NCBI GenBank assembly: GCA_019695375.1
Contig: JAIBAC010000010.1
Coordinates: 1 to 40,079, forward strand
Source of the DNA: Acidimicrobiia bacterium
Lineage (GTDB): Bacteria; Actinomycetota; Acidimicrobiia; UBA2766
DNA length: 40,079 bases
Direction of reading: 5' to 3'
The position numbers and the translations under genes are program-made. A model generated the notes under the pieces. The model saw only the letters and a list, made by a program, of their open reading frames with translations. It made no database searches and was not told where the DNA came from. Every line of letters begins with the position of its first letter. Position 1 is the stretch's first letter. Of the stretch, positions 22,953 to 40,079 are shown piece by piece.

Positions 22953-22955
22953 TGT
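22950..22955 (+). promoter_or_regulatory. Candidate internal -10 element before aroH
   Basis: TAGTGT overlaps the rluB stop codon and ends 7 nt before the aroH ATG, the distance expected for a leaderless transcript. The only ggagg nearby (22940-22944) is too far from the ATG to be an efficient ribosome binding site, which favours this reading. Confidence 0.35.
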
Positions 22956-22962
22956 TGCGCAG

Positions 22963-25741: not shown

Positions 25742-26423
25742 GCCCGTCGCCGTCCTTGCGATCGACGGCCCCGGGGGAGCGGGCAAGTCGACCGTGGCCG
25801 CGCTGGTGGCGCGACTCCTGGGCATGCGCCGCCTCGACACAGGTGCCCTGTACCGGGCGGTGACCGCTGCCGTCCTGCACGAGGGCATCGCTCCTGACGA
25901 CGCCGAGTCGTGCGGAGATGTCGCCGCGCGTGTGCACATCGCGCTCTCCGACGGGCGTGTGAGCGTCGACGGCCGCGACGTCACCACCGAGGTGCGCGGC
26001 GCGGAGGTGACCGCCGCTGTCGCGATGGTGAGTGCGCACCCTCGGGTGCGGCGTGCCCTCGTCGAGCACCAGCGCGAGCTGGCCGCACGCGGTGGGTGGG
26101 TCGTCGAGGGCCGCGACATCGGCACCGTCGTGTTCCCCGACGCGGCGCTCAAGGTCTACCTCACAGCGTCGCCGTCCGTCCGCGCCCGGCGGCGGGCGCG
26201 AGAGATCGGTGAAACGGATCTGGACCGGGTGGAGTCTGAGATCAGACGACGTGACACCGCGGACTCGACGCGTCCGGACTCGCCGCTGCGCCCCGCCGAC
26301 GATGCGGTCACCGTCGTCACCGACGACCTCACGGCGGATGAGGTCGCCGCGGAGATCGCGACCCTTTGGAGGCACCGGTGGGACCAGTCGGGACGGACGT
26401 GGACGACGCGGACCGAAGGCTGA
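25734..26423 (+). CDS. cmk: Cytidylate kinase
   Basis: Phosphorylates CMP and dCMP; 229 residues, typical length. The P-loop is DGPGGAGKST (about 10-19), followed by LDTGALYRAVT and the NMP-binding region, VEGRDIGTVVFPDA, and the LID segment with RRRAREIGE. It overlaps aroA by 8 nt. The scpA-scpB-rluB-cmk order is the common actinobacterial arrangement, here with aroH-tyrA-aroA inserted before cmk. An upstream frame extension to 25314 is a shadow of aroA. Confidence 0.95.
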   Translation: MSEPVAVLAIDGPGGAGKSTVAALVARLLGMRRLDTGALYRAVTAAVLHEGIAPDDAESCGDVAARVHIALSDGRVSVDGRDVTTEVRGAEVTAAVAMVSAHPRVRRALVEHQRELAARGGWVVEGRDIGTVVFPDAALKVYLTASPSVRARRRAREIGETDLDRVESEIRRRDTADSTRPDSPLRPADDAVTVVTDDLTADEVAAEIATLWRHRWDQSGRTWTTRTEG

Positions 26424-27106
26424 CCCGCAAGACGAGGCGCCCGGCGCCGGAGGACCAGCCGATCCTGCTCGACCAGCACCGCACCTACAAGGTCCTGCGC
26501 GCGCTGTCGGTGCCTGCGTACAAGTTCCTGTGGGGGCTGCAGGTCGAGGGAGCGCACCGGGTCCCGGTGGACGGACCGGTCATCATCGCAGCCAACCACC
26601 GCTCGAACTTCGACTCGGCCGTGCTGCCCCGCATCACGCACCGGCCCGTCAACTTCATGGCCAAGAGCGAGTTCTTCGCGACCCCGGGCCTGTCGCGCTT
26701 CCTCGGCCACATCGGCGCCTTCCCCGTCGATCGCGGCCGCCCCGACAAGGCCGCCACCGCACATGCGCTCGCGGTGCTCCGCGCCGGCGGTGTGCTCGCC
26801 GTCTATCCCGAGGGGACCAGGTGCACCGGCCGCGAGATCGGGCCCGTCCAGCGCGGCCCGGTCTGGCTGGCCCAGCGTGCCGACGCGCAGATCCTGCCCG
26901 TCGGGATCGGTGGCAGCGAGTTCACCCAGGTCAAGGGGTCCAAACGCATACATCGGATGCGGATCCGCATCGTCGTGGGCGACCCGCTGCCCCCACCTGT
27001 GTCGCGGAGCCGGGAGGCGCTCGCATCGCGGAGCACCGAGGTCGTCAAGGCCATCGGGGAGCTCTTCCTCGAAGCCGGTGGCCCGGGGCCGATCCCGTTC
27101 CGCTGA
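26378..27106 (+). CDS. 1-acyl-sn-glycerol-3-phosphate acyltransferase (PlsC family)
   Basis: Membrane-associated acyltransferase that makes phosphatidic acid; 242 residues. Motif I is N-H-x4-D (NHRSNFD, about 69-75), motif III FPEGT appears as VYPEGTRC, and PVGIGGSEF marks the last motif. The GTG at 26378 has ggagg 5 nt upstream (26368-26372), better placed than the in-frame TTG at 26366. It overlaps the end of cmk. In many actinobacteria this gene sits between cmk and der; here der is 8.7 kb further on. Confidence 0.92.
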   Translation: MGPVGTDVDDADRRLTRKTRRPAPEDQPILLDQHRTYKVLRALSVPAYKFLWGLQVEGAHRVPVDGPVIIAANHRSNFDSAVLPRITHRPVNFMAKSEFFATPGLSRFLGHIGAFPVDRGRPDKAATAHALAVLRAGGVLAVYPEGTRCTGREIGPVQRGPVWLAQRADAQILPVGIGGSEFTQVKGSKRIHRMRIRIVVGDPLPPPVSRSREALASRSTEVVKAIGELFLEAGGPGPIPFR

Positions 27107-27146
27107 TCCCATCCCAGGGCCGTTCGTCGTAGCACGAACAGGGATC
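27105..27146 (+). terminator. Nested inverted repeat after plsC
   Basis: Outer arms gatccc (27105-27110) and gggatc (27141-27146) enclose inner arms gttcgt (27122-27127) and acgaac (27134-27139). The structure begins at the plsC stop codon, so a terminator for the nine-gene operon is likely; the inner dyad could also be an operator. The remaining bases to 27269 show no clear promoter. Confidence 0.4.
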
Positions 27147-27269
27147 TTCGCGGCAATACCGGACACACCTCCTCAAGATTGGCTGATCTAGGTCGATCTA
27201 CCCATAGGGATGTGGGATGGGGGCAACGTGGGACACGCCGGGGCGGGCTGGACGACCCGGAGCGACCAC

Positions 27270-28481
27270 TTGCACTCACGACGAGACCTACTCAAGGGCA
27301 TTGCGGCGGGGGCCGCAGCGGCTGTCGCAGCACCGATGGGGGCAGCCATCGGCGCCACCGTCACCCCTGAGAACCAGACTCCGGGCAGTGCCGACTGCAC
27401 CCCCGTGGTGGGCAGCGGCTCACCCCGCGCTGGATGGTGCGTGTACGACCACAGTGCGATAGATGCCGCCCACTTCGCAGCGCTGAGGGCATTGCGGCCC
27501 ACGATCCTGAGGTGGTTCGTTTCGTGGGACCGCTACCACCTCCAGCCGCGCAGCGGCGGCAACGGCGGTCTCGTGGCACCTCCGGACTGGCTCAACGGCC
27601 CGTACCGGGAGTTCTTCGAGGAGCTCGCTCCCTCGACCCTGAACCCGAGGGGTACGACGCTCGTCGTGCAGATGCAGGTGAAGGGCCCGAGCTGGGAGGG
27701 TGACAGCCAACCGTCCCAGAACCCGGGCACGAAATGGGCGCGTTGGGACCAGTTCTACGGCCGGCAGTACCCGGACCGCTTCGGTGTCGCCGCGACCTAC
27801 GGAGCGTTCGTCAAAGGTCTCGACGCGGCGCTCGCGTCCATGAACGTGGACGTCATCTGGGAGGCATGGAACGAAGCCGACCTGCGCGGTCAGCTCGGTG
27901 CCAGCGGCGCGGCCGAGAACTTTCTCGATCCCTGGTACGTGAACCCGTTCAACCTGTTCAACGGAGTGCCGTGGTACTACTGGTCGGGAGGCGCCGGCGA
28001 GCTCTGGCACTCCCTCTATCAACAGCTGCCCAGGGCCGGCTGGGGGACGAGCGGGCTCGTCAAGCCGAACTGGGTGCAGCGCACAGCCCAGTTCCCGGAG
28101 GTGGGCTACCTGGGCCTGCACCGGTACTTCCCCTACGGTGCCATCACCGCCACGAACTTCGTCAAGGACATCGAGAAGATGGTCACGGCGTGGGACCAGG
28201 CAGCCCCGCATCTGCCCAAGCGCAAGGTGTTCCTGGGGGAGTGCGGCATCGGTACGACGGTCCAGGACACCAACCTGCAGTTCGCCGCGACTCTGTTCAG
28301 GCGCCACGAGGCGCTGTCGCAGGCGAACGAGGACCCTGCCTCGCCCCTGTACGGCCGGTATGTCGGCACGACCGCTCACAGCGGTGGGCGCGGGGTGCGG
28401 TCGACGTGGGAGCTCGACCCCGCTGACCCCGCTGCCGCCTGGTGGCAGTACAAGTCCGGGTACGAGCAGTACACGGCCTGA
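27270..28481 (+). CDS. Tat-exported glycosidase-like protein 1
   Basis: A 403-residue secreted protein. A twin-arginine signal (SRRDLLK at residues 3-9, then an Ala/Gly-rich hydrophobic stretch) directs it to the Tat system. The body looks like a clan GH-A (beta/alpha)8 glycoside hydrolase: IRW-type strand PTILRWFVSWDR, acid/base candidate Glu202 in WEAWNEAD (the Asn-Glu motif), and nucleophile candidate Glu324 in VFLGECG. The family and substrate are not recognised. The TTG at 27270 was preferred over ATG 27210 because it aligns exactly with the start of the paralogue at 28671 (both 403 residues, both with SRR at positions 3-5) and has cggag upstream. Confidence 0.75.
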   Translation: MHSRRDLLKGIAAGAAAAVAAPMGAAIGATVTPENQTPGSADCTPVVGSGSPRAGWCVYDHSAIDAAHFAALRALRPTILRWFVSWDRYHLQPRSGGNGGLVAPPDWLNGPYREFFEELAPSTLNPRGTTLVVQMQVKGPSWEGDSQPSQNPGTKWARWDQFYGRQYPDRFGVAATYGAFVKGLDAALASMNVDVIWEAWNEADLRGQLGASGAAENFLDPWYVNPFNLFNGVPWYYWSGGAGELWHSLYQQLPRAGWGTSGLVKPNWVQRTAQFPEVGYLGLHRYFPYGAITATNFVKDIEKMVTAWDQAAPHLPKRKVFLGECGIGTTVQDTNLQFAATLFRRHEALSQANEDPASPLYGRYVGTTAHSGGRGVRSTWELDPADPAAAWWQYKSGYEQYTA

Positions 28482-28597
28482 GGGCGGACCTTCGGCACTA
28501 CGACCGCCGAGGCCTGCCGTTCTCACGGACCCTTCAGGAAATGTCTCAGACGCGGGACAATCGCGTCGACGATCTCGGCGCTGAAGTGGCCTTGATG

Positions 28598-28603
28598 TAC
28601 CGT
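28598..28603 (+). promoter_or_regulatory. Weak candidate -10 element before the second glycosidase-like gene
   Basis: TACCGT fits TAnnnT and would give a leader of about 60 nt. No -35 box is evident. The 189-nt gap between the two paralogues otherwise shows only GC-rich sequence with a pyrimidine-rich run near 28630-28650. Confidence 0.2.
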
Positions 28604-28670
28604 CGAAGGTGGTGTCGGGCTCTCCCCGCCCGGGCACCCTCCTCCCCCCAGCCCCGGATCGGTCCCTCCC

Positions 28671-29882
28671 ATGCAATCTCGTCGTCTGTTCCTGAAAGGC
28701 GTCGCGGCCGGTGCCGCAAGCGCCGCTGGCATGTCCGCTGTCGGTGGAGGCCTGCTGGCAGCGAGTCCAGCCGCGCAGGCGGCCGATGACCCGGCGTGCG
28801 CGCCCCAGATCGCCCCGACACCGACGGCTTCGCCCCGCGCTGGATGGAACGTCTACGACTCCGAGGCCATCGATCCCGTTCACCTGTCGGCGCTGCAGCA
28901 GCTTCGCCCCACGATCCTGCGCTGGTTCGTGTCCTGGGACCGCCACCACATACTCGGCGCCGACGAGGCCGACGGGATCCCGGCTCCGCCGGATTGGCTC
29001 AACGGTCCCTACCGTGCCTTTCTCGATCTGTGCCAGGCATCGACCGCGAACCCACGCGGCACGACCCTGGTCGTCCAGTTCACCTGCAAGGAACCCGGCT
29101 GGACCGGAGACGGCTGGCCGACCGGGCGACCGGGCACCACGTGGGCGCGCAAGGACCGGTGGCTGGGCTCCATGTACCCCGACCGCTACGGCATAGCCCC
29201 GACCTACGGCGCGTTCGTGAGGTCCGTCAAAGCGGCCATGGACGAACTCGGCATCGACGCCCACTACGGGGCGTGGAACGAGCCCGACCTGCGCACCAGC
29301 GTCGGCGTTCGGTATGCAACACAGAACTTCGTGGAGCCCTGGGCTGTGAACCCGTTCGACCTCGCCCGCGGTGCTCCGTACCACAACTGGTCCGGCGGGG
29401 CCGGTCCGCTGTGGCAGGAACTGCATGCGCAGCTCCCGGGGTCGTCGATGACGACGAGCGGGATCATCTTCCCCGAGTGGATCACGCGCACTGCGGAGCT
29501 GGCAGGAGTCGGGGTCATCGACATCCACCTCTACGACGCGTCGTCGGACCCGCAGCAGTACGTCACACGTTGTGAGGAGCAGGTGCAGGCCTGGGACGAC
29601 GCCGCGCCCGGCCTCGCCAGGCGCAAGGTCCTCCTCGGTGAGGCTGCCACCGACTTCGCGTTGGCGCACACGGTGTCGAGCGCGGCGTGGCTGTGGCAGC
29701 GTCACGAGGCGCTGTCGCAGGCCAACGAGAACTCGGCGTCTCCGCTCTACGGCCGCTACCTGGGCATGTGCAGCCACTCCGGGAAATCGACAGCGGACGC
29801 TCCGGCGCCGTGGCAGCTCGCGCCGACCGATCCCGCTGCAGGGTGGTGGCAGTACAACCCTGCATACGCTTCCTTCACCTGA
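28671..29882 (+). CDS. Tat-exported glycosidase-like protein 2
   Basis: Tandem paralogue of the preceding protein, also 403 residues. The signal peptide has SRRLFLK at 3-9 and a probable cleavage after AAQA near residue 37. Shared blocks include SPRAGW, LRPTILRWFVSWDR, PPDWLNGPYR, NPRGTTLVVQ, PTYGAFV, RHEALSQANE, SPLYGRY and DPAAxWWQY. The putative catalytic pair is Glu204 in AWNEPD (the classical clan GH-A NEP) and Glu324 in VLLGEAA. Conservation of both glutamates in both copies argues that both are active enzymes. Substrate unknown; polysaccharide or glycoconjugate hydrolysis outside the cell is inferred. Confidence 0.78.
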   Translation: MQSRRLFLKGVAAGAASAAGMSAVGGGLLAASPAAQAADDPACAPQIAPTPTASPRAGWNVYDSEAIDPVHLSALQQLRPTILRWFVSWDRHHILGADEADGIPAPPDWLNGPYRAFLDLCQASTANPRGTTLVVQFTCKEPGWTGDGWPTGRPGTTWARKDRWLGSMYPDRYGIAPTYGAFVRSVKAAMDELGIDAHYGAWNEPDLRTSVGVRYATQNFVEPWAVNPFDLARGAPYHNWSGGAGPLWQELHAQLPGSSMTTSGIIFPEWITRTAELAGVGVIDIHLYDASSDPQQYVTRCEEQVQAWDDAAPGLARRKVLLGEAATDFALAHTVSSAAWLWQRHEALSQANENSASPLYGRYLGMCSHSGKSTADAPAPWQLAPTDPAAGWWQYNPAYASFT

Positions 29883-29892
29883 GCTCCCGCCT

Positions 29893-29898
29893 TATGGT
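29893..29898 (+). promoter_or_regulatory. Candidate -10 element for the carotenoid oxygenase gene
   Basis: TATGGT fits TAnnnT and lies just after the stop of the second glycosidase-like gene. Initiation about 7 nt downstream gives a leader of about 29 nt with gggagtg before the ATG at 29934. Confidence 0.4.
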
Positions 29899-29933
29899 GT
29901 GCGGTGTCCGAGGAGCCGCACCCGGGAGTGACG

Positions 29934-31295
29934 ATGACCGCCGCCGACACCACCAACGCCCAGCTCTCCTATGTGGAGGGGTCCCTCGCTCCCGTCGCCG
30001 AGGAGCTCACGCTCACCGACCTCGACGTGAGCGGCTCCCTGCCGGCAGACCTGTGCGGACGATACGTCCGCAACGGACCGAACCCCATCGGTGCGGACCC
30101 GGCCGCCTACCACTGGTTCACCGGCTACGGGATGGTCCACGGGGTGCGCCTCGAGGACGGCGAGGCACGCTGGTACCGCAACCGCTACGTCCGTACCGCT
30201 GCGGTGTCCGAAGCGCTGGGCGAGGCCCCGATCGACGGACCGCAGCCGCCCGAGGGAGCGGGAGCGTCGGTGAACACCAACGTGATCCGCATCGCCGGGC
30301 GCACGCTCGCGCTGGTGGAGGCGGGCGCGTTCCCGATCGAGCTGTCCGAGGATCTCACCAGTGTGGGCGGCTGCGACTTCGACGGCACCCTCATGGGCGC
30401 CTACACCGCGCATCCCGCGTATGAGCCTGCTGCTCGCAGCTGGCACGCGATGACCTACTTCTGGCCGGAAGAGGGTGTCCGCTACCTCGTGGTCGGCCCC
30501 GAAGGCCGTGTGACCCACAACGAGTTCCTCGACCTCGGTGAGCGCATAATGCTCCACGATACGGCGCTCACGTCGTCGCGAGTTCTCGTGTTCGACATGC
30601 CGGTGACGTTCAACGTCGAAGCGGCGATGTCGGGTGCGACGTTCCCGTACCGGTGGAACCCCGAGCGCCCGGCGCGTGTCGGCGCGATCCCGCTGCGTGG
30701 CTCCGCTGACGAGATCAGTTGGTGCGAGGTACCCCAGTGCTACGTGTTCCACTCGGCCAACGCCCGTGACCTCGACGGCGATCGGGTGTCCATCGACGTC
30801 GTGCGCTGGCCGCGCATGTTCGACACCGACCCCCTCGGTCCCAACGAAGGCGTGTCGACGCTGGAGCGCTGGGTCCTCGACTTCGGGCGCGGCCGGGCCA
30901 CGACCGAGGTGCTCGACGATCGCATGCAGGAGTTCCCCCGCTACGACTACCGCCGCAGCGGCACCGAGAACCGGCACGCCTACGCCATCGCCATGGACGG
31001 CGCCGTCAGGAACGCGACAGCGCTGCTGTGCCACGACCTCGTCGCCGGAACCACCGCCGAGGTCTCCTTCGGCCCCGGTACTGCACCTCACGAGTTCGTC
31101 TTCGTGCCGCGTGCGGGCGCGGCAGCCGACGACGAGACCGACGGGTGGCTTGTCGGCTACGTCTCCGACCGCGCAGCCGGGACGACCGACCTCGTGGTGG
31201 TCGGCGCCGCCGACCCCGGCGCCGGCCCTGTCGCCCGCGTCCACATCCCCGCACGCATCCCGGACGGCTTCCACGGCAACTGGATCAGCGACTGA
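29934..31295 (+). CDS. Carotenoid oxygenase family (RPE65/lignostilbene dioxygenase-like) protein
   Basis: Non-haem iron dioxygenase that cleaves carbon-carbon double bonds of carotenoids, apocarotenoids or stilbenes. The 453-residue product has all four iron-binding histidines: His160 (TAHPAY), His208 (MLHDTAL), His273 (VFHSAN) and His447 (FHGNW), plus the N-terminal RNGPNP block. No signal peptide, so it is cytoplasmic or membrane-associated. The ATG at 29934 has gggagtg upstream; the in-frame GTG at 29904 lacks a ribosome binding site. No carotenoid biosynthesis gene is nearby, so the substrate is open. Confidence 0.92.
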   Translation: MTAADTTNAQLSYVEGSLAPVAEELTLTDLDVSGSLPADLCGRYVRNGPNPIGADPAAYHWFTGYGMVHGVRLEDGEARWYRNRYVRTAAVSEALGEAPIDGPQPPEGAGASVNTNVIRIAGRTLALVEAGAFPIELSEDLTSVGGCDFDGTLMGAYTAHPAYEPAARSWHAMTYFWPEEGVRYLVVGPEGRVTHNEFLDLGERIMLHDTALTSSRVLVFDMPVTFNVEAAMSGATFPYRWNPERPARVGAIPLRGSADEISWCEVPQCYVFHSANARDLDGDRVSIDVVRWPRMFDTDPLGPNEGVSTLERWVLDFGRGRATTEVLDDRMQEFPRYDYRRSGTENRHAYAIAMDGAVRNATALLCHDLVAGTTAEVSFGPGTAPHEFVFVPRAGAAADDETDGWLVGYVSDRAAGTTDLVVVGAADPGAGPVARVHIPARIPDGFHGNWISD

Positions 31296-31299
31296 CCAG

Positions 31300-31333
31300 C
31301 GACCCGCGGCCCGCGGGACACGGTCGCGGGTCG
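31300..31333 (+). terminator. Hairpin after the carotenoid oxygenase gene
   Basis: Perfect 9-bp arms cgacccgcg (31300-31308) and cgcgggtcg (31325-31333), beginning 5 nt after the stop codon. The loop contains the small palindrome ccgcgg. Likely a terminator without a T-run. Confidence 0.5.
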
Positions 31334-31338
31334 GCGAA

Positions 31339-31440
31339 CTCGGCGCGCAGATGCACGTCTAGTCCGGACTCGGCGCGAGGACGGCACCATGGTGCCGTCC
31401 TCGCGCCGAGACGTCGGATCGTGTCCGGATGCGCGCCGAG
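31339..31440. repeat. Large symmetric palindromic element between convergent genes
   Basis: A 102-nt element centred at 31389/31390. The core, 31369-31410, is a perfect 42-nt palindrome whose 20-base arm is ctcggcgcgaggacggcacc. On each side a non-complementary 19-nt segment separates the core from an outer pair of 11-bp arms, ctcggcgcgca (31339-31349) and tgcgcgccgag (31430-31440), at equal distance from the centre. The 9-nt motif ctcggcgcg therefore occurs twice in each arm. It lies between the stops of the carotenoid oxygenase gene (+) and the sulfurylase gene (-), so it could act as a two-way terminator, or be a REP- or MITE-like repeat. Confidence 0.8.
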
Positions 31441-31455
31441 ATTCCGGCGAACGGC

Positions 31456-33180
31456 TCAGTCGGCGCCGATGAAGCCTTCGTGTTCGAGGTGGAGCAGCAC
31501 CTGCTGGGCGGCCTCTTCGGGCGTGACGGTCGTCGTGTCGATGGTGAGGTCGGCGTCCTCGGGCACCTCGTACGGGTCGCTGATGCCCGTGAACTCCTTG
31601 ATGATGCCTTCGCGCGCCTTGGCGTAGAGGCCCTTGCGGTCGCGCTGCTCGCACACCTCCAACGGGGTGGCGACGTGGACGAGGACGTAGCCACCGCCGG
31701 TACCCGAGATGACGCTGCGGTTCTCGCGGCGCACCGAGTCGTAGGGGGCGATCGGCGCGCAGATGGCGATGCCGCCGTTCTTGGTGATCTCCGACGCCAC
31801 GTACCCGATGCGCAGGATGTTCAGATCGCGGTGCTCCTTGGAGAAGCCGAGCTCGGAGCTGAGGTTCTTGCGCACTATGTCGCCGTCGAGGAGCGTGACC
31901 GGACGCCCACCCATCTCGAGGAGCTTGACGAGCAGCACGTTCGCGATCGTCGACTTGCCGCTGCCGGAGAGCCCGGTGAAGAAGACCGTGAATCCCTGCT
32001 GGTGGCGCGGCGGGTAGGAGCGACGCAGCTCGGCCGCGACCTCGGGGTATGTGAACCACGACGGGATCTCGCGGCCCTTGGCGAGGCGCTCGCGCAACTC
32101 GGTTCCGCTGATCGAGAGGGTCTTGGTGCCCTCGGGGATCTCGTCCACCGGGGCGTACTCGTCCTCGTCCGGCTTGTACACCATCATCTGGAACGGGACC
32201 ATCGTGACGCCGAGCTCTGCCTCGTGCTTCGCGAGGAGCTGCTGCGCGTCGTAAGGGCCGTAGAAGGGGTTCCCTGCCGAGTCCTTGCCCGGGCCCGCGT
32301 GGTCGCGCCCGACGATGAAGTGGGTGATCCCGTGGTTCTTGCGGATGATCGCGTGCCACACCGCTTCACGCGGGCCGCCCATGCGCATCGCGAGGGGTAG
32401 CAGCGAGAGCTTGGCGGTGTGGGCGGGGTAGTGGCCGAGGAGGGCCTGATAGCAGCGCACCCGCGTGTAGTGGTCGACGTCGCCGGGCTTGGTCATGCCG
32501 ACGACGGGGTGGATGAGGAGGTTCGCCTCGAGCTGCTTGGCGGCGCGCAACGTGAGCTCGGCGTGAGCACGGTGCATCGGGTTGCGGGTCTGGAAGGCCA
32601 CGACCTTGGTCCAGCCCAGCTTCGCGAACTCAGCGCGGACCTCTGCCGGTGTCGCACGCAGCTCGCGGTAGTCGTAGTGCGCAGGCGCCTGGATGCCCTC
32701 GACGCGGCCCCCGAGGTAGACGGGGTTCGCACGGTTCAGCACGTAGTCGACTCCGGGGTGGGTGGCGTCGGTGGTCCCGAACACGGAGCGGGCCTCGGCC
32801 TCGCGGTCGGGCCTGTAGACGTCCTCGACGTGGAGGGCGGCGAGCATGACGCCCTCTTCGTCGCGAAGGGCCACCGTGGAGCCCACCTCGATGCCCTCGG
32901 CGAACTCCTCGGTGACGTCGAGGGTGATCGGCATCGGCCACAACGTCCCGTCCGCGAGGCGCATGTCGGTGCAGACGCGCTGGTGGTCGGCGGAGACCAT
33001 GAAGCCGCGCAGGGGCGAGAAGGCCCCGCTGATCAGGAGCTCGAGGTCGCAGAGCTGTCGAGGCGTGAGGTCCCACGACGGCCATTCCCGCGAGGCAGCC
33101 TTGAGCTCTGCGGCGCGGGCGTCGTCGACGAGGAGATCGACTAGCTCGCCGCCATGGGGCGGGTTCAGGTGGTCTGCCAC
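31456..33180 (-). CDS. sat: Bifunctional sulfate adenylyltransferase / adenylylsulfate kinase
   Basis: Fusion enzyme that activates sulfate to APS and then phosphorylates it to PAPS. The 574-residue product has an N-terminal ATP sulfurylase domain (about 1-385) with FQTRNPMHRAH (the QxRN and HxxH active-site motifs) and VGRDHAGPG, and a C-terminal APS kinase domain (about 395-574) with P-loop GLSGSGKST, LDGDIVR, and KGLYAKAREG. Both sets of motifs look intact. This sulfurylase-kinase order is known from Aquifex and fungi and differs from the separate cysD/cysN-C system. The GTG start has gaaggg upstream. ispH lies 129 nt upstream on the same strand. Confidence 0.94.
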   Translation of the reverse strand: MADHLNPPHGGELVDLLVDDARAAELKAASREWPSWDLTPRQLCDLELLISGAFSPLRGFMVSADHQRVCTDMRLADGTLWPMPITLDVTEEFAEGIEVGSTVALRDEEGVMLAALHVEDVYRPDREAEARSVFGTTDATHPGVDYVLNRANPVYLGGRVEGIQAPAHYDYRELRATPAEVRAEFAKLGWTKVVAFQTRNPMHRAHAELTLRAAKQLEANLLIHPVVGMTKPGDVDHYTRVRCYQALLGHYPAHTAKLSLLPLAMRMGGPREAVWHAIIRKNHGITHFIVGRDHAGPGKDSAGNPFYGPYDAQQLLAKHEAELGVTMVPFQMMVYKPDEDEYAPVDEIPEGTKTLSISGTELRERLAKGREIPSWFTYPEVAAELRRSYPPRHQQGFTVFFTGLSGSGKSTIANVLLVKLLEMGGRPVTLLDGDIVRKNLSSELGFSKEHRDLNILRIGYVASEITKNGGIAICAPIAPYDSVRRENRSVISGTGGGYVLVHVATPLEVCEQRDRKGLYAKAREGIIKEFTGISDPYEVPEDADLTIDTTTVTPEEAAQQVLLHLEHEGFIGAD

Positions 33181-33241
33181 GAGGGTTCCCTTCTGGAGAT
33201 GCGGTACGTAGGGCTGTGAGCGCGCCGCCGCGGCGACGGGG

Positions 33242-33265
33242 TCGGGGGAGCGCCCCGAGAGTCTA
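33242..33265 (-). promoter_or_regulatory. Candidate promoter and leader hairpin for the sulfurylase gene
   Basis: On the minus strand TAGACT (33265-33260) is a good -10 match; transcription would begin near 33253, giving a leader of about 73 nt. Immediately there, arms tcgggg (33242-33247) and ccccga (33253-33258) can form a hairpin. The sulfurylase gene therefore need not depend on read-through from ispH. Confidence 0.4.
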
Positions 33266-33309
33266 TCGGCAGGTGCGGTGGCCGGATCAGGCGTACGGCC
33301 CGCGACCTG

Positions 33310-34401
33310 CTACTCGACGGCTTCTGCGGTGTCGAGGCCTGCAAGCACGTCGGCGGCGCTGTGGGACCTGTCCGAGCCGGGAGTGCCGGAACCGCCGGTA
33401 CGGCCGGTCGTCGCGCCGACGAGCACGTCGAGCGCTCGGATCAGGTCGCGCAGCTCCCTCGGGAGCGGGAAGTACTCGTCCTCGTCGGTGACGCGGCGGT
33501 ACTCGACCTCGCGTGGCCGAAGGCGCTCGACGACCGCTCTCACCACGCTCTCGGGCGCCGACGCCCCTGCGGTGACGGCGATCCGGCGCGCTCCCGCCAG
33601 CAGGCGGTCGTCGATGTCCTCGGGGCCGTCGATGCGGACCGAGCCGGGGGCACCGGACGCGCGGGCCGTGCGCACCAGCGCCTGCGTGTTGGACGAGTTC
33701 TCGCTGCCGATCACGAGCACGATGTCGCAGTCGGCCGCGACATCACGCACTGCCGCCTGCCGGTTCGTCGTCGCGAAGCAGAGGTCGGAGCGGCCCGGCG
33801 TCCAGAGGTCGGGGAAGCGCTCGCGTGCCGCGTCGAGGATCTCGGACCACTCACCGTGGGCGAGGGTCGTCTGCGCGAGCAAGGCCACCTTGCCGGCACC
33901 AGCCCGCATGGACAGTGCCTCGACGTCGGCCGCCTTCTCGACGAGATGCATCGACTGCGGCGCCTCGGCCATGGTCCCGATCGCTTCGTCGTGGCCGGCA
34001 TGACCGACGTAGATGATGTCGAAACCGGCGGCCGCACGCTTGCGCGCCTCGTGGTGGACCTTGGTCACGAGCGGACACACGGCGTCGACGACGACTCCGC
34101 CTCCGGCACGGGCAGCGGCCACGACCTCCGGCGCCGATCCGTGGGCGGACAACATGAGCGGACTGCCCGCCGGGACCTCGGACACGTCGTCGACGAAGAC
34201 CACGCCGGCCGCTTCGAACGCCTCGACCACCAAACCGTTGTGGACGATCTCGTGGTAGCAGTACACGGGTGGCTCGAACACGCGCAGCATCCAGCCGAGC
34301 GAGTTGATCGCCATCTCGACTCCAGCGCAGAAGCCCCGCGGTTCGCAGACGACGACCCGTTCGACCCCGGGAATGTGATTGCTCTCGGTCTCGGCGGTCA
34401 C
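33310..34401 (-). CDS. ispH: 4-hydroxy-3-methylbut-2-enyl diphosphate reductase
   Basis: Last enzyme of the MEP isoprenoid pathway, an iron-sulfur reductase making IPP and DMAPP. The 363-residue product carries the three cluster cysteines in CEPRGFCAGVEMA (Cys25 the ligand), DAVCPLVTKVH and LCFATTNRQ, plus HGSAPEV and SENSSNT. A C-terminal extension of about 45 residues after the family core makes it longer than the E. coli enzyme (316). The GTG at 34401 lacks a ribosome binding site and is 6 nt after a TAnnnT hexamer. The frame stays open to 35676, but that part is a shadow of the DUF512 gene. The isoprenoid product could feed carotenoid metabolism. Confidence 0.95.
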   Translation of the reverse strand: MTAETESNHIPGVERVVVCEPRGFCAGVEMAINSLGWMLRVFEPPVYCYHEIVHNGLVVEAFEAAGVVFVDDVSEVPAGSPLMLSAHGSAPEVVAAARAGGGVVVDAVCPLVTKVHHEARKRAAAGFDIIYVGHAGHDEAIGTMAEAPQSMHLVEKAADVEALSMRAGAGKVALLAQTTLAHGEWSEILDAARERFPDLWTPGRSDLCFATTNRQAAVRDVAADCDIVLVIGSENSSNTQALVRTARASGAPGSVRIDGPEDIDDRLLAGARRIAVTAGASAPESVVRAVVERLRPREVEYRRVTDEDEYFPLPRELRDLIRALDVLVGATTGRTGGSGTPGSDRSHSAADVLAGLDTAEAVE

Positions 34402-34407
34402 GGCTGA

Positions 34408-34413
34408 AGGGTA
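34408..34413 (-). promoter_or_regulatory. Candidate -10 element for leaderless ispH
   Basis: On the minus strand TACCCT ends 6 nt before the GTG start at 34401, and no Shine-Dalgarno sequence fits in the gap, so a leaderless transcript is likely. It forms a divergent pair with the element at 34468-34473. Confidence 0.4.
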
Positions 34414-34467
34414 GGCGTCCCTCTGCGGTGGGAGCCGGGCGCCTGCTGCGCGGGCGGCCTCGATCGG

Positions 34468-34473
34468 TAACCT
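34468..34473 (+). promoter_or_regulatory. Candidate -10 element for the DUF512 gene
   Basis: TAACCT fits TAnnnT and lies 9 nt before the TTG at 34483, again with no ribosome binding site between them. A very short leader or a leaderless transcript is expected. Confidence 0.4.
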
Positions 34474-34482
34474 GAGCGCGTC

Positions 34483-35793
34483 TTGCGGATCCGCATCGCG
34501 TCCATCGCCGCCGACTCGCCTGCCTGCGCATCCGGCCTGCGCGCGGGCGACGAGATCGACACCGTCTCCGGCGTCCGTCCCCGTGACGTCCTCGACTACG
34601 CGCGGCTCTCGGCCGATCCGGACGCCGAGGCCGTCCTCGGTGACGGCCGCACGGTCCCGGTCGCGGCTCTGAGCGGCGCGACCCTCGACGATGCCGTCTT
34701 CGACGGTGTCAAGACCTGCGACAACCACTGCTCCTTCTGCTTCATCTACCAGCTGCCCAAGCAGATGCGTCCGAGCCTCTACCTCAAGGACGACGACTAC
34801 CGCCTCTCGGCGATGTACGGGAACTTCACGACCCTCACGCGTTTCACCGAAGCCGACCTCGAGCGTGTCCTCGACGAGCGCATCGAGCCGCTGCACGTGA
34901 GCATCCATGCGACCGATCCGCACGTGCGTGCCGGCATGTTGCGCAACCCGAAGGGCGGCATGAGCCTGCGCTGGTTGCGGGCGGTGCTCGACGCCGGACT
35001 CGAGGTCCACGGCCAGGTCGTGTGCTGCCCCGGAGTCAACGACGCCGACGTCCTCGACGCCACGATCGCCGCCCTGCTCGCCGGCTACCCCGAGCTCGCC
35101 TCGGTCGGCGTCGTCCCGTTGGGGGTGAGCCGCTTCAACTCCGAGGACGGTCTGCGTGCGCCGACACCCGACGATGCCAGTGCGACGCTCGAGGCCATCC
35201 ACGCGTGGCAGGCCGTCGCGCTGGAGCGCCTCGGACGCCGCCTCGTGTTCGCATCGGACGAGTGGTACCTCGTGGCCGGTGTCGGCTTCCCGGCGGCGCA
35301 CGAGTACGAGGGGTTCCCCCAGCACGAGAACGGCATAGGGATGGCGCGGGCGCTCGAGGCCGACCTGACGCCGGCACCCGGACGCGCGGTGGGTGCGCCG
35401 GCTTGGGGCTACCGGGCGGAGCGAACCCCGGATGCGGCGTCGGTGTCCGCCCGGCGTGGGGCCACACGTGTGGCGATCATGAGCGGTGAGCTCGGCGCTC
35501 GGGTGGTGGCGCTGCTCGTCGCCGACCGCAGCGACGTCGACGTCGTCGCCGTCCCGAACCGGTTCTTCGGCGGCAACGTCGGCGTCACGGGCCTCCTCAC
35601 CGGCACCGATCTCGCGCACGCGATCTCTGCACTCGATCCTGGCGTGGAGGCCGTCGTGCCCGACGTCGTGTTCCACGAGGGCCGCACCCTCGACGAGTGG
35701 TCGGCCGAGGACCTCGCGTCCCGCACCGGCCGCGCTGTGCGCGTCGTCACCACAGATGCCGCCGGGCTGCGAACAGCGGTGGGTTCCGGGTGA
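34483..35793 (+). CDS. DUF512 family protein (PDZ-like plus radical-SAM-like domains)
   Basis: A 436-residue protein of a widespread but poorly characterised family. The N-terminus is a PDZ-like module (IASIAADSPACASGLRAGDE, about 4-23). The centre has the cysteine motif CDNHCSFCFIYQLPKQMR (about 80-97), which resembles a radical SAM cluster-binding loop, followed by LHVSIHATDPHVR. The C-terminus is the DUF512 domain. The TTG start matches the family's usual beginning directly at the PDZ segment. It overlaps der by 4 nt (GTGA); the DUF512-der pairing is common and hints at a link to ribosome maturation, but the reaction is unknown. Confidence 0.87.
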   Translation: MRIRIASIAADSPACASGLRAGDEIDTVSGVRPRDVLDYARLSADPDAEAVLGDGRTVPVAALSGATLDDAVFDGVKTCDNHCSFCFIYQLPKQMRPSLYLKDDDYRLSAMYGNFTTLTRFTEADLERVLDERIEPLHVSIHATDPHVRAGMLRNPKGGMSLRWLRAVLDAGLEVHGQVVCCPGVNDADVLDATIAALLAGYPELASVGVVPLGVSRFNSEDGLRAPTPDDASATLEAIHAWQAVALERLGRRLVFASDEWYLVAGVGFPAAHEYEGFPQHENGIGMARALEADLTPAPGRAVGAPAWGYRAERTPDAASVSARRGATRVAIMSGELGARVVALLVADRSDVDVVAVPNRFFGGNVGVTGLLTGTDLAHAISALDPGVEAVVPDVVFHEGRTLDEWSAEDLASRTGRAVRVVTTDAAGLRTAVGSG

Positions 35794-37121
35794 CCGCGGT
35801 GCTGCCCCGGGTCGCGATCGTCGGCCGCCCCAACGTGGGCAAGTCGACGCTGCTCAACCGCTTCGTGGGCAAGCGCGTGGCGATCGTCCAGGAGCGGCCG
35901 GGCGTCACCCGCGACCGCGGTGAGCACGAGGTCGATTGGTGCGGGAGGCGCTTCCTCGTCATCGACACGGGCGGATGGCAGGCGCGCCCGGACGACCCGA
36001 TCGACACCGCGATCCGTGAGCAGGCCGAGCGTGCGATCAAGGGCGCCGACGTCGCTCTCTTCGTCATCGACGCGCAGGTCGGCGTCACCGGAGAGGACGA
36101 CGAGGCGGCGCGCCTCCTGCTCAGAGCCGGCATACCCACGCTGCTGGTCGCCAACAAGGTCGACGGTCCCGTGGGTCACGCCGATCTCTCCGACCTGTAC
36201 GGCCTCGGCCTCGGCGACCCGATCCCGGTCTCCGCTCTGCACGGCCGCTACTCGGGTGACCTCCTGGACAAGGTCCTCGAGGTCCTGCCCGAGGTGGACG
36301 ACGCCGTCGGGGTCGACGCCGGCGCGGAGGCGTCCATCGCGATCGTGGGCCGGCCCAACGTGGGCAAGTCGACGCTGTTCAACCGCCTCGCGGGCGACGA
36401 GCGCTCGATCGTGCACGACATGCCCGGCACCACAAGGGACACCGTCGACACGCTCGTCGAGCTCGACGGGACGACGTATCGCTTCGTCGACACCGCGGGC
36501 CTGCGCCGGCGCTCTCGCGTCGACGACGAGACCGAGTACTACAGCCGAGTCCGCGCGTTGAGAGCGCTCGAGCGCGCCGACGTCGCCCTGCTCGTCGTAG
36601 ATGCGACCGAGGGCGTCACGTTCGCCGACCAGAAGGTCGCCGAAGAGGTGCTGGCGGCGGGCAAGGCGGTCGTCGTCCTCTTGAACAAATGGGACCTGCT
36701 CGACGCGGACGCCAAAGCCGCAGCCGCCGACACGGTCACCGACGAACTGCGCTTCCTGGACTGGGCACCGGTGCTTCGCATCTCGGCACTCACGGGCGCG
36801 AACGTCAAGCGCCTCGCCGCCACGCTGTCGCAGGTGCTCGACGAGTTCCGCCGCCGTGTGCCCACCCACGTTCTCACGAAGGTCGTCGAGGAGGCGCAGC
36901 AGCGCCATCCACCGCCGCTCATCAAAGGGAAGCGGCCCACGCGGATCCGTTACGCCACCCAGCCACGTGCGGAGCCGCCGATGTTCGTGATGTTCGCCAA
37001 CCGCCGCCTGCAGACCGACTACCTGCGCTATCTCGAGCACCGCCTACGCGCGCAGTTCGGCTTCGCCGGCACGCCGGTGCGCATCAGGGTCAAGGTCAAC
37101 GAGCCGAAGACGAAAGGGTGA
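35790..37121 (+). CDS. der: Ribosome biogenesis GTPase Der (EngA)
   Basis: Double-GTPase needed for 50S subunit assembly, 443 residues. Two tandem G domains each carry GRPNVGKST (about 10-18 and 185-193), G3 DTGGW and DTAGL, and G4 NKVD and NKWD. The C-terminal KH-like domain contains PPLIKGKRPTRIRYATQ and FVMFANR, then the final PVRIRVKVNEPKTKG. GTG start overlapping the DUF512 gene. The HMG-CoA lyase gene starts 5 nt after its stop. Confidence 0.96.
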   Translation: MTAVLPRVAIVGRPNVGKSTLLNRFVGKRVAIVQERPGVTRDRGEHEVDWCGRRFLVIDTGGWQARPDDPIDTAIREQAERAIKGADVALFVIDAQVGVTGEDDEAARLLLRAGIPTLLVANKVDGPVGHADLSDLYGLGLGDPIPVSALHGRYSGDLLDKVLEVLPEVDDAVGVDAGAEASIAIVGRPNVGKSTLFNRLAGDERSIVHDMPGTTRDTVDTLVELDGTTYRFVDTAGLRRRSRVDDETEYYSRVRALRALERADVALLVVDATEGVTFADQKVAEEVLAAGKAVVVLLNKWDLLDADAKAAAADTVTDELRFLDWAPVLRISALTGANVKRLAATLSQVLDEFRRRVPTHVLTKVVEEAQQRHPPPLIKGKRPTRIRYATQPRAEPPMFVMFANRRLQTDYLRYLEHRLRAQFGFAGTPVRIRVKVNEPKTKG

Positions 37122-37126
37122 GGCAG

Positions 37127-38047
37127 ATGGTCCAGACCCCGGCGAAGCTCCCGAACAGCGCGACCGTGAGGGAGGTCGGCCCCCGTGACGGACTCCAGAA
37201 CGAGGAGCCCGTCGCAGTCGCCGACCGCGTGCGCCTCGTCGATGCCCTGAGCCGCACGGGCCTGCGCCGCATCGAGGTCGGCGCCTTCGTGCACCCGGAC
37301 GCGATCCCGCCGATGGCCGGCAGCGAGGAGGTGTTCGCGCGGATCGAGCGCGTCCCGGGCGTGCGCTACACGGCTCTCGTCCCGAACGCACGCGGCGTGG
37401 AACGGGCGTTCGCAGCCGGCGCGGACGAGGTCGAGGTCGTGGTGTCCGCGTCGACCACCCACAACGAGCGCAACGTGAGGCGCACCACCGAGGAGTCGAT
37501 GAAAGCGGTGCCTGCGCTCGTGACGATGGCGCACGACGCGGCCATCCCGGTGCAGGGCATCGTGGCCACCGCGTTCGGCTGCCCGTACGAAGGAGACGTG
37601 GACCCAATCCGCGTCGCGGCACTGGTGCACGCCTACCTCGACGCGGGTTGCGACTCCGTCTGCCTCGGCGACACGACCGGGATGGCGACGCCGACACGCG
37701 TCTGGGACGTGATCGGCAGGCTGCCGGCGTGCGACCTGACGCTGCATCTGCACAACACGCGGGGGACGGGCCTCGCCAACGTCCTGGCCGCGCTCGAGGC
37801 CGGGGTCACGAACTACGACGCGAGCGTTGGCGGCATGGGGGGCTGCCCGTATGCGCCGGGTGCGACGGGCAACATCGTGACCGAGGACCTCGTCCACATG
37901 CTCGAGGACATGGGTGTCGACACCGGAGTCGACCTAGGCGCCCTCGTGGCGTGTGCGGCGATGGCCGAGGAGATCGTCGGCCGCGAGCTCCCGAGCCAGG
38001 TCCTGCGGGCCGGCCCCCGAACCGCTGCCACGGCGGCCGCCCGATGA
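37127..38047 (+). CDS. Hydroxymethylglutaryl-CoA lyase
   Basis: TIM-barrel lyase that cleaves HMG-CoA to acetoacetate and acetyl-CoA, the last step of leucine breakdown. The 306-residue product has the N-terminal VREVGPRDGLQNE (catalytic Arg-Asp pair), LHLHNTRG (metal-binding His-x-His) and the family signature GGMGGCPYAPGATGN with the active-site cysteine. The ATG has gtgagg just upstream and is 5 nt after der. Its stop overlaps the carboxyltransferase ATG (ATGA), placing two steps of one pathway in a single transcript. Confidence 0.94.
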   Translation: MVQTPAKLPNSATVREVGPRDGLQNEEPVAVADRVRLVDALSRTGLRRIEVGAFVHPDAIPPMAGSEEVFARIERVPGVRYTALVPNARGVERAFAAGADEVEVVVSASTTHNERNVRRTTEESMKAVPALVTMAHDAAIPVQGIVATAFGCPYEGDVDPIRVAALVHAYLDAGCDSVCLGDTTGMATPTRVWDVIGRLPACDLTLHLHNTRGTGLANVLAALEAGVTNYDASVGGMGGCPYAPGATGNIVTEDLVHMLEDMGVDTGVDLGALVACAAMAEEIVGRELPSQVLRAGPRTAATAAAR

Positions 38048-39567
38048 CACACGACTGGCAGGCACTCGCCGCCGAGGTCGACGCAGGCGGCAGTCCGAAA
38101 GCGCACGAGAAGCTGCGCTCGCAGAACAAGCTGTTCGTGCGCGATCGGCTCGAACTCCTGCTCGACGAGGGCTCCCTCGTCGAGGACGGCCGCTACGCCA
38201 ACGCGCTCGCGGGGGACCTGCCGGCGGACGGAGTCGTGACCGGTACCGGGCGCGTCAACGGCCGTCCCGTGGCGGTGATGGCGAACGACCCCACGGTCAA
38301 GGCCGGCTCCTGGGGTGCGCGCACGGTCGAGAAGATCGTGCGCATCACCGAGGTCGCCTACCGCGACGCGATCCCGATCGTGTACCTCGTCGACTCGGCC
38401 GGCGCCCGCATCACCGATCAGGTCGACCTCTTCCCCGGCCGCCGCGGCGCCGGACGCATCTTCCACAACCAGGTGCGCCTGTCCGGCCGCGTGCCGCAGA
38501 TCTGCTGTCTGTTCGGTCCTTCGGCTGCCGGCGGCGCGTACATCCCCGCGTTCTGCGACGTCGTCATCATGGTCGACGGCAACGCTTCGATGTACCTCGG
38601 CTCGCCTCGTATGGCCGAGATGGTCATCGGCGAACACGTCGACCTCGAGGAGATGGGCGGCGCGCGGATGCACACGACCGAGTCGGGCTGCGGCGACTTC
38701 CTCGTCGCCGACGACGCCGAGGCGATCGAGGTCGCGCAGCGCTACCTGGCGTACATGCCGCAGAACTGGCGTCTGCTGCCGCCCGCCGAGCCTGCCGTGG
38801 CGCCGGCGACCGAGACGTCGCGCATCGCCGAGCTCGTCCCGGCCGACGACCGTGACGTCTACGACGTGCGCGACGTGATCGAGGCGACTGTGGACGCCGA
38901 CAGCTTCCTCGAGGTCAAAGAAGGCTGGGCACCCGAGCTCGTCATCGGGTTCGCCCGGCTCGAGGGTGCCTCGATCGGCGTGGTGGCGAACCAGCCCGAG
39001 GTCCTCGGTGGTGTGCTCTTCGTCGACAGCGCCGACAAGGCCGCTCGATTCATCTGGCTCTGCGACGCCTTCAACCTGCCGCTCGTGTTCCTCGCCGATG
39101 TTCCCGGCTTCATGATCGGCAGCGCCGTCGAGCGCGCCGGGATCATCCGCCACGGCGCCAAGATGATCACAGCAGTGAGCGAGGCGACGGTGCCCAAGGT
39201 CTGCGTCGTCCTGCGGAAGGCCTTCGGCGCGGGCCTGTACGCGATGTCGGGGCCCGGCTTCGCGCCGGAGGCGACGCTGGCACTGCCGACGGCGCAGATC
39301 GCGGTCATGGGACCCGAGGCTGCGGTCAACGCCGTCTACTACAACAAGATCCGCGAGCTCCCCGAGTCCGAACGCGAGGCGTTCGTCGCAGCGAGACGTG
39401 AGGAGTACGCGGCCGACATCGACCTCCTGCGCCTCGCGTCGGAGAACGTCGTCGACGCGGTCGTCGATCCCGCGGACCTGCGGTCCGAGCTCGCGAGACG
39501 CCTGTCGAACTCGGCGTGGAAGGACCGCCAGTTCTCGGACCGCCGTCACGGCGTCCCCCCGGTCTGA
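38044..39567 (+). CDS. Acyl-CoA carboxylase carboxyltransferase (beta) subunit, probably methylcrotonyl-CoA type
   Basis: Transfers carboxyl from carboxybiotin to an acyl-CoA; 507 residues, normal for the family. Both crotonase-fold halves are present, with oxyanion-hole glycines in GPSAAGGAYIPAF and later in KAFGAGLYAM, plus YLAYMPQNW between them. The AGGAYIPA form and the adjacent HMG-CoA lyase suggest 3-methylcrotonyl-CoA carboxylase of the leucine pathway; propionyl-CoA or geranyl-CoA are alternatives. No biotin-carrying alpha subunit is in the window. The frame extends back to 37648 as a shadow. Confidence 0.92.
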   Translation: MTHDWQALAAEVDAGGSPKAHEKLRSQNKLFVRDRLELLLDEGSLVEDGRYANALAGDLPADGVVTGTGRVNGRPVAVMANDPTVKAGSWGARTVEKIVRITEVAYRDAIPIVYLVDSAGARITDQVDLFPGRRGAGRIFHNQVRLSGRVPQICCLFGPSAAGGAYIPAFCDVVIMVDGNASMYLGSPRMAEMVIGEHVDLEEMGGARMHTTESGCGDFLVADDAEAIEVAQRYLAYMPQNWRLLPPAEPAVAPATETSRIAELVPADDRDVYDVRDVIEATVDADSFLEVKEGWAPELVIGFARLEGASIGVVANQPEVLGGVLFVDSADKAARFIWLCDAFNLPLVFLADVPGFMIGSAVERAGIIRHGAKMITAVSEATVPKVCVVLRKAFGAGLYAMSGPGFAPEATLALPTAQIAVMGPEAAVNAVYYNKIRELPESEREAFVAARREEYAADIDLLRLASENVVDAVVDPADLRSELARRLSNSAWKDRQFSDRRHGVPPV

Positions 39568-39821
39568 CCCGAACCCCGACGTGGGGACGTGGATCGGCGT
39601 GAGAGCGCGTTTCGCGTCCCCACGTCCGTTCGGGTCGCACACGTGGGGACGTGGATCGGTGTGAGAGCGCGTTTCGCGTCCCCACGTCCGTTCGGGCCCC
39701 CCGACGTGGGGACGTGGATCGGCGTGAGAGCGCGTTTCGCGTCCCCACGTCCGTTCGGGCTGCACACGTGGGGACGTGGATCGGCGTGAGAGCGCGTTTC
39801 GCGTCCCCACGTCCGTTCGGG
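39568..39821. repeat. Four near-identical 56-bp palindromic repeats in tandem
   Basis: Copies lie at 39579-39634, 39641-39696, 39704-39759 and 39766-39821, separated by 6, 7 and 6 nt (tcgcac, ccccccg, ctgcac). The only difference seen is T for C at position 20 of copy 2. Each copy begins acgtggggacg and has the complement cgtccccacgt near its end, so each can fold into a stem of 11 bp or more with a loop of about 25 nt, followed by ccgttcggg. The array is preceded by cccgaac (39568-39574), the complement of the copy-end gttcggg. It fills the gap between the carboxyltransferase gene and the last gene. Confidence 0.93.
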
Positions 39822-39832
39822 ACGCGGGTGAG

Positions 39833-39838
39833 TAGGTT
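39833..39838 (+). promoter_or_regulatory. Candidate -10 element for leaderless last gene
   Basis: TAGGTT fits TAnnnT and ends 6 nt before the ATG at 39845. There is no ribosome binding site in between. Any -35 region would fall inside the last repeat copy. Confidence 0.45.
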
Positions 39839-39844
39839 CAGCCC

Positions 39845-40078
39845 ATGGCGCGAACCTGTCCCGAGTGCGGCTGGATCTGGCCCAAACCCAAGGGTCCCTG
39901 CCCCGTGTGCGGCTCCGACGCGGCACCGGAGCTGGACCTCACAGAGGCCGGCACGGCTCCCGCGGGCGACAGAAGAGCGAAGATGCCGTGGCACCTCAAG
40001 CTCCTCGTGGCGTCGCTCGCGGTCTACCTGGGCTGGCGGGCGTTCCAGGGCATCGAGTGGCTCATCCACCACATCTGA
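39845..40078 (+). CDS. Small zinc-ribbon membrane protein
   Basis: A complete 77-residue protein. The N-terminus is a rubredoxin-like zinc ribbon with CPEC at 5-8 and CPVC at about 19-22; a short polar linker leads to one membrane helix (about 50-66) and a His-rich end (IHHI). The family is not recognised. The ribbon would be cytoplasmic by the basic residues before the helix. It has its own likely leaderless promoter immediately after the repeat array and ends one base before the window end. Confidence 0.75.
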   Translation: MARTCPECGWIWPKPKGPCPVCGSDAAPELDLTEAGTAPAGDRRAKMPWHLKLLVASLAVYLGWRAFQGIEWLIHHI

Positions 40079-40079
40079 A

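What the first reader, a model, noticed from the sequence alone, without database searches (positions are those of the whole stretch)
39568..39821. Array of four almost identical 56-bp hairpin repeats with 62-63 nt period
Copies differ at a single base, so the array is recent or kept uniform by gene conversion. Each unit has near-terminal inverted repeats, and the array is bounded by cccgaac and gttcggg in opposite orientation. The 62-63 nt period equals about six helical turns, so binding sites would face the same side of the DNA. It is placed directly before a small zinc-ribbon membrane protein gene. This could be a regulator or nucoid-protein binding array, an RNA hairpin array, or a mobile repeat.
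Basis: partly seen in the sequence, partly recalled or inferred. Interest (0 to 1): 0.62.

Follow-up and report, generated by a model that had tools for sequence, protein, structure and literature searches.

The report
Phased palindrome arrays at gene ends
The four repeats are one of about 60 short arrays scattered after the ends of genes in this bacterium; each repeat is a strict 47-base mirrored site, neighbours are set whole turns of the DNA helix apart, and two relatives carry the same layout with their own spelling, which suggests protein-binding sites resembling known gene-end repeats but with no known copying enzyme.

Summary
The array is real and belongs to a genome-wide family. The unit is a 47-bp inverted repeat, ACGTGGGGACG-N25-CGTCCCCACGT. 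The genome holds 136 exact copies (reversed-pattern control: 0). I examined 144 units in 60 clusters, spaced 62 bp (74 of 84), 72 bp (6), 61 bp (2) or 63 bp (2).

Clusters sit a median of 12 bp after stop codons. 23 of 50 lie between convergent genes, against 13% of other gene gaps.

Two relatives of the same family carry the same architecture (ACGTGGG-N33-CCCACGT; 59 and 37 copies) with different inner arms, even at orthologous loci. Their spacings are 61-62, 71-73 and 83 bp: steps of one helical turn. A third family member has none; other class and phylum genomes show only 0-2 scattered chance matches.

Outer boxes are nearly invariant (0.1% mismatch) while interiors differ by 30% between arrays, and the halves do not covary as base pairs. 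This favours cooperatively bound double-stranded DNA sites over RNA hairpins.

The family works like REP/BIME elements at transcription-unit ends. However, the REP transposase (Y1_Tnp) was not detected in the three carrier genomes, and interior palindromy is not preserved. I call it a new variant of a known kind; the trans-acting factor is unknown.

The parts
39579..39625 (+). unit 1: 47-bp inverted repeat (outer boxes ACGTGGG/CCCACGT, arms ACGTGGGGACG/CGTCCCCACGT)
39641..39687 (+). unit 2 (one substitution, T at 39660)
39704..39750 (+). unit 3
39766..39812 (+). unit 4
39626..39640 (.). spacer 1, CCGTTCGGGTCGCAC (15 bp, array-specific)
39688..39703 (.). spacer 2, CCGTTCGGGCCCCCCG (16 bp)
39751..39765 (.). 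spacer 3, CCGTTCGGGCTGCAC (15 bp)
39813..39821 (.). partial spacer copy in the right flank, CCGTTCGGG
37648..39567 (+). upstream gene, carboxyl transferase (Pfam PF01039); its stop codon ends 11 bp before unit 1
39845..40078 (+). downstream gene, 77-aa zinc-ribbon/membrane protein (ATG at 39845), no Pfam match; incidental neighbour

Best explanation
The array is one member of a dispersed family of extragenic elements that works like REP/BIME arrays. SHOWN: each element is a 47-bp double-box site (ACGTGGG...CCCACGT) placed just after the ends of transcription units, and elements stand side by side at whole-helical-turn spacings (about 62, 72, 83 bp) so that all copies present the same DNA face. 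INFERRED: a dsDNA-binding protein recognises the two inverted half-sites, and neighbouring copies bind cooperatively. The array then acts as a bidirectional boundary at the 3' end of genes, for example stopping or insulating readthrough from convergent genes or anchoring a topology or nucleoid protein. PARTLY SHOWN: arrays grow by tandem duplication of a 62- or 72-bp segment that includes local flank. INFERRED: the half-site sequence is homogenised across the genome by copying between loci and drifts with its unknown recognition protein, so each lineage has its own version.
For: Family and control: 136 exact copies against 0 for the reversed pattern. Spacing: 62x74, 72x6, 61x2, 63x2 in this genome; 61x12, 62x4, 71x1, 72x2 in G002; 62x1, 72x2, 73x1, 83x1 in G003 loci. 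Ten arrays off the main mode in three genomes all differ from it by 10-11 or 21 bp; under a uniform-residue model the chance is about 6e-8. Same architecture with lineage-specific arms in G002 (59) and G003 (37) and in none of about 390 other class genomes beyond single hits. An orthologous array with both flanking genes conserved (79% and 78% identity) carries G002 arms in G002 and G003 arms in G003. Outer boxes: 3 mismatches in 2880 positions, while interiors differ by 30% between arrays, and no decayed full-length copies in 718 kb. No positive pairing covariation. Placement: median 12 bp from 3' ends; convergent enrichment P = 9e-8, 0.011 and 1e-4 in the three genomes; one array ends 4 bp from a tRNA 3' end. 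Unit orientation is independent of gene direction.
Against: No binding protein has been identified and no experiment was possible. Invariance of the outer boxes could also arise from constant copying by a recombinase that needs intact boxes. The outer 11-bp stem hardly varies in this genome, so RNA pairing there cannot be tested. Most array positions are not shared between G002 and G003, so individual arrays seem dispensable. In several tandem contexts the downstream gene starts only 2-34 bp after the array, leaving little room for a promoter if the array ends all transcription.
Confidence: 0.5

Rival explanations
1. A selfish or mutualistic miniature element population, as REPINs are with RAYT: the inverted repeat is the substrate of an unidentified transposase or recombinase acting in trans. 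Preference for gene ends reflects tolerated or preferred targets, and homogeneous arms reflect enzyme specificity.
For: Gain or loss at orthologous sites: an array in G003 between two genes whose stop codons are only 10 bp apart in G002. Lineage-specific expansions with retained orientation. Placement identical to published REPs (PMC3733652). Intact boxes with drifting interiors.
Against: No Y1/RAYT (PF01797) detected in G000, G002 (98% complete) or G003. No target-site duplication seen around single copies (by eye). No recurrent gene family beside arrays. No degraded full-length copies. Helical quantisation of spacing is not expected for simple insertion.
Confidence: 0.3
2. RNA hairpins: bidirectional intrinsic terminators or 3'-UTR stabilisers that act in the transcript.
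For: Position just after stop codons and between convergent genes. Strong predicted fold. No T-tailed terminators in 20 kb of the window (0 found, 3.9 expected from shuffles). One array abuts a tRNA 3' end.
Against: Interior pairs show no covariation in G002 and G003 and are significantly anti-paired in G000 (Watson-Crick 0.36 against 0.46 in shuffles). RNA hairpins do not need 10.5-bp steps in spacing. Arms are fixed in sequence rather than only complementary. No U-tract. Unit orientation ignores gene direction although one strand folds 9 kcal/mol better.
Confidence: 0.13
3. Ordinary local minisatellite without function, duplicated by slippage.
For: Spacers look like joined flank pieces (48% of arrays match at 0.8 or more against 2.6% of controls), as tandem duplication gives.
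Against: About 60 clusters on many contigs share the same 47-bp unit and the arrays share the period with unrelated spacers. Conserved across two genera. Boxes are invariant.
Confidence: 0.04

Closest known systems
REP / BIME elements (E. coli BIME-2; GTAG- and CGTC-tagged REPs)
   Same: High-copy extragenic palindromes, often in regularly spaced clusters, within about 20 bp of 3' ends and between convergent genes (PMC3733652). BIME-2 arrays bind gyrase (PMC2817692; PMC6379681).
   Different: Unit is exactly 47 bp with outer ACGTGGG boxes. No GTAG tag, and no CGTC tag shared by all three genomes. Spacing quantised by helical turn. Interior palindromy not conserved. No RAYT detected.
REPINs with RAYT transposase
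   Same: Two inverted conserved ends with a variable middle, replicated and kept as an intragenomic population, species-specific sequence (PMC3116915, PMC8049555: abstracts only, and own knowledge).
   Different: No Y1_Tnp in the three carrier genomes. Strict length and phased tandem arrays.
DNA uptake sequence (DUS) dialects of Neisseriaceae
   Same: Related genomes use different versions of a short motif (PMC3630211). From my own knowledge, inverted DUS pairs often sit at gene ends.
   Different: Here boxes occur almost only as 47-bp pairs: 2 exact single ACGTGGGGACG outside units in 454 kb, about 0.6 expected. DUS occur singly and in thousands (own knowledge).
Rho-independent bidirectional terminators
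   Same: Location at convergent 3' ends and hairpin potential.
   Different: No U-tract, no pairing covariation, phased tandem copies.

Membership tests
REP/BIME (broad sense: repetitive extragenic palindromes) | high-copy short inverted repeat in extragenic DNA | tested here: met
   136 exact copies; nearly all clusters in gene gaps
REP/BIME (broad sense: repetitive extragenic palindromes) | placement near 3' ends, mostly convergent or unidirectional gaps | tested here: met
   median 12 bp from 3' ends; 23 convergent, 23 tandem, 4 divergent of 50
REP/BIME (broad sense: repetitive extragenic palindromes) | clusters of regularly spaced units in alternating orientation | tested here: met
   49 arrays of 2-4 units; boxes alternate orientation
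RAYT-linked REP/REPIN | Y1_Tnp/RAYT gene in the genome, flanked by the repeats | tested here: not met
   PF01797 absent in G000, G001, G002, G003, found in 5 of 14 control genomes; the genomes are incomplete drafts (87-98% complete)
RAYT-linked REP/REPIN | palindromic structure preserved by complementary changes | tested here: not met
   no excess pairing at variable interior pairs; deficit in G000; the invariant outer stem is untestable
GTAG/CGTC-tagged REPs | terminal unpaired GTAG or CGTC tag, stem 5-13 bp (GTAG) or 8-9 bp (CGTC) | tested here: not met
   outermost bases are ACGT, paired, in all three genomes; CGTC follows only in part of G000
DNA uptake sequences | motif over-represented singly across the genome including coding DNA | tested here: not met
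   2 single copies in 454 kb
Intrinsic terminator | stem-loop followed by U-tract | tested here: not met
   spacers are G/C rich with no T run
Gyrase- or nucleoid-protein-binding array | bound by the protein in vivo | not testable with these tools
   needs ChIP, Topo-seq or DAP-seq

The most novel reading that the evidence does not exclude
A previously undescribed genome-wide system in one actinobacterial family: a dedicated DNA-binding protein reads a 47-bp twin-box site in helically phased arrays at transcription-unit ends. Site sequence and protein specificity change together in each lineage (a genome-wide 'dialect'), without any REP-type transposase.
Probability: 0.3. Interest if true: 0.8.

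Novelty: new variant of a known kind. Interest (0 to 1): 0.58.

Why it matters
BIME-type arrays have been studied mostly in E. coli and other proteobacteria, tied to RAYT transposases and gyrase. This family has the same placement with no RAYT detected. It adds two clean quantitative clues, a fixed 47-bp site and one-helical-turn spacing classes shared by three genomes, that point to cooperative protein binding. The arms differ between related genomes even at an orthologous locus, so site and reader could be compared as they co-evolve. That makes the open question of whether such repeats are host tools or passengers directly testable.

Tried and rejected
RNA hairpin or terminator as the main role: rejected for the interior by the covariation test. 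RAYT mobilisation: PF01797 not found. Rfam families: no match over the arrays. Viral origin: no match in 2.9 million viral contigs. Named public genomes: the exact-arm pattern hits only three unrelated lone hairpins, in Oscillospiraceae, Bacillota and Propionibacteriales MAGs, with other interiors and no Y1 transposase evident among the listed neighbouring ORFs (by eye). DUS-like single motifs: not enriched. Covariance model in 295 class relatives: none; its strict first look makes that weak, so I rely on the exact pattern search. Spacer as pure target duplication: flanks explain only about half the arrays. Recurrent neighbour gene as trans factor: none. Gene caller: a simple codon model of my own, so gaps of a few bases and some starts may be off. 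The P-value from the ten off-mode arrays assumes they are independent.

Full report
OBSERVATION. The window holds four copies of a 47-bp inverted repeat at 39579, 39641, 39704 and 39766, spacing 62, 63, 62. The GTTCGGG motif ends every copy, so it is spacer sequence, not a boundary mark.

GENOME-WIDE FAMILY. The window lies in a 332-contig draft genome (G000, 3.48 Mb, 91% complete). The pattern ACGTGGGGACG-N10..35-CGTCCCCACGT occurs 136 times, its reversed control never. I fetched 53 loci and, with the window, found 144 units in 60 clusters: 11 singles and 49 arrays of 2-4. All units are 47 bp long. Start-to-start spacing is 62 bp in 74 cases, 72 in 6, 61 in 2, 63 in 2, and nothing else below 200 bp. 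Copy numbers are lower bounds, because arrays sit at contig ends more often than expected (12 of 60 within 300 bp, P about 1e-4), as repeats break short-read assemblies.

ANATOMY. The first 10 bases of each half show 3 mismatches in 2880 positions, whereas the 25-bp interior differs by 30% between arrays and by 4.9% within arrays. No full-length decayed copy was found in 718 kb, so the boxes are either under selection in place or continually renewed. Spacers are specific to each array. In 48% of arrays the spacer equals, at 80% or better, the start of the right flank joined to the end of the left flank (2.6% in controls), as expected if arrays grew by tandem duplication of a 62- or 72-bp segment including local DNA.

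RELATIVES. A 20-stretch sample of G002, of the same family but another genus, showed a tandem repeat of period 61-62 whose unit is also a 47-bp inverted repeat. Searching ACGTGGG-N33-CCCACGT gave 149 copies in G000, 59 in G002 and 37 in G003. G001 of the same family had 0, and about 390 other class genomes had 0 or 1. A sample of 297 phylum genomes (this genome plus 296 outside its family) gave 0-2 in the others; the one genome with 2 had 6 control hits. The outer seven bases and the length are shared, but the next bases are lineage-specific: GACG in G000, CGTAYT in G002, YGGATY in G003. Spacing in G002 is 61, 62, 71 or 72, and in G003 62, 72, 73 or 83. Every clearly off-mode array (more than 1 bp from its genome's mode) differs from it by 10-11 or 21 bp, i.e. 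one or two helical turns (ten arrays; about 6e-8 under uniform residues, assuming independence).

ORTHOLOGOUS SITES. In one gap G002 and G003 both carry a two-unit array, with both flanking genes orthologous (79% and 78% identity) and the flanking DNA alignable up to the array. The G002 copy has G002 arms and the G003 copy has G003 arms. Some positions are therefore old while the arm sequence has been replaced genome-wide. At another gene pair G003 has an array where G002 has 10 bp between the stop codons, and one G002 array has no counterpart in G003. Turnover is thus real. Most positions are not shared.

HAIRPIN OR DUPLEX SITE? If the element acted as an RNA or single-strand hairpin, interior differences should be compensated. 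Keeping left and right columns and shuffling partners, Watson-Crick pairing at variable pairs is 0.62 against 0.61 in G002, 0.45 against 0.46 in G003, and 0.36 against 0.46 in G000. In G000 the halves avoid pairing, perhaps to escape the instability of long perfect palindromes. Both halves follow the same degenerate consensus, as two inverted protein half-sites would. The outer stem cannot be tested because it hardly varies.

PLACEMENT. With a simple gene caller, G000 clusters fall in 23 convergent, 23 tandem and 4 divergent gaps, against 72, 389 and 94 other gaps. The distance to 3' ends has median 12 bp, to 5' ends 66 bp. Convergent enrichment holds in all three genomes (P = 9e-8, 0.011, 1e-4). 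One array (L072:5001-5233) lies 4 bp from the 3' end of a tRNA gene (5238-5311, minus strand), so the mark is the transcription-unit end rather than translation. Unit orientation is unrelated to gene direction.

MECHANISM. I favour a dsDNA binding platform: an unknown protein binds the two inverted half-sites, copies in phase bind together, and the array forms a two-sided boundary at gene ends. This works like E. coli BIME-2, which binds gyrase. The protein, the boundary effect and the copying route are inferred. The main rival is a REPIN-like element driven by an unknown recombinase; the Y1 transposase that defines RAYT systems was not detected in G000, G002 or G003, though all are drafts.

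KNOWN KINDS. Placement and abundance match published REP elements, which lie under 20 bp from 3' ends and between convergent genes (PMC3733652). That paper also describes CGTC-tagged REPs with no associated transposase. But the defining tag is absent, palindromy of the interior is not preserved, and helical quantisation was not mentioned in the REP passages I read. My few text searches found no description of this family. I therefore rate it a new variant of a known kind.

ORGANISM. The class includes a genus of many genomes of about 1 Mb and a family with complete genomes of 4.8-5.0 Mb, which makes me think of Acidimicrobiia (inference from memory, not tested).

Noticed in passing
L093:980-1620; L116:1-261 and about 387-470; L073:7109-7359; L096:2764-3061; L104:1550-1731 (G000): A second array family in the same genome: an inverted repeat of about 80 bp (CCGAGGTGCTTCCTC...GAGGAAGCGCCGAGCGCC) with period 92-94, up to 7 copies, often touching a 62-bp array; 30 pattern matches in G000 and none in G001-G004.
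   Followed up: partly
L090:8148-8271 and L107:12012-12134 (G000): A third array family: CAAACGCGGGTGGG...CCCGCGTTTGG, about 50 bp, period 64. Its centre resembles the centre of the 62-bp family (GTGTGGGCGCGT).
   Followed up: partly
L080:1489-1534, L121:8427-8477, L107:10388-10439, L088:5861-5908, L089:2760-2805 (G000): Single perfect or near-perfect palindromes of the type GTTGGAGCACGGGGCGGCCACATGTGGCCGCCCCGTGCTCCAAC in several loci; a fourth dispersed palindrome family.
   Followed up: no
L239:3957-5167 (G002) against L261:3977-4197 (G003): In G002 about 1 kb of extra, possibly minus-strand coding, DNA lies between two units at a locus where G003 has two adjacent units, as if DNA entered between units or units flank a mobile segment.
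   Followed up: no
L045:5807-5858, L046:6257-6306, L047:5144-5189: Lone hairpins with the same 11-bp arms but unrelated interiors in Oscillospiraceae, Bacillota and Propionibacteriales MAGs; perhaps a different widespread GTGGGGACG palindrome family or convergence.
   Followed up: partly
window 20080-40079: No T-tailed intrinsic terminator found in 20 kb (3.9 expected from shuffles), suggesting this genome rarely uses them.
   Followed up: no
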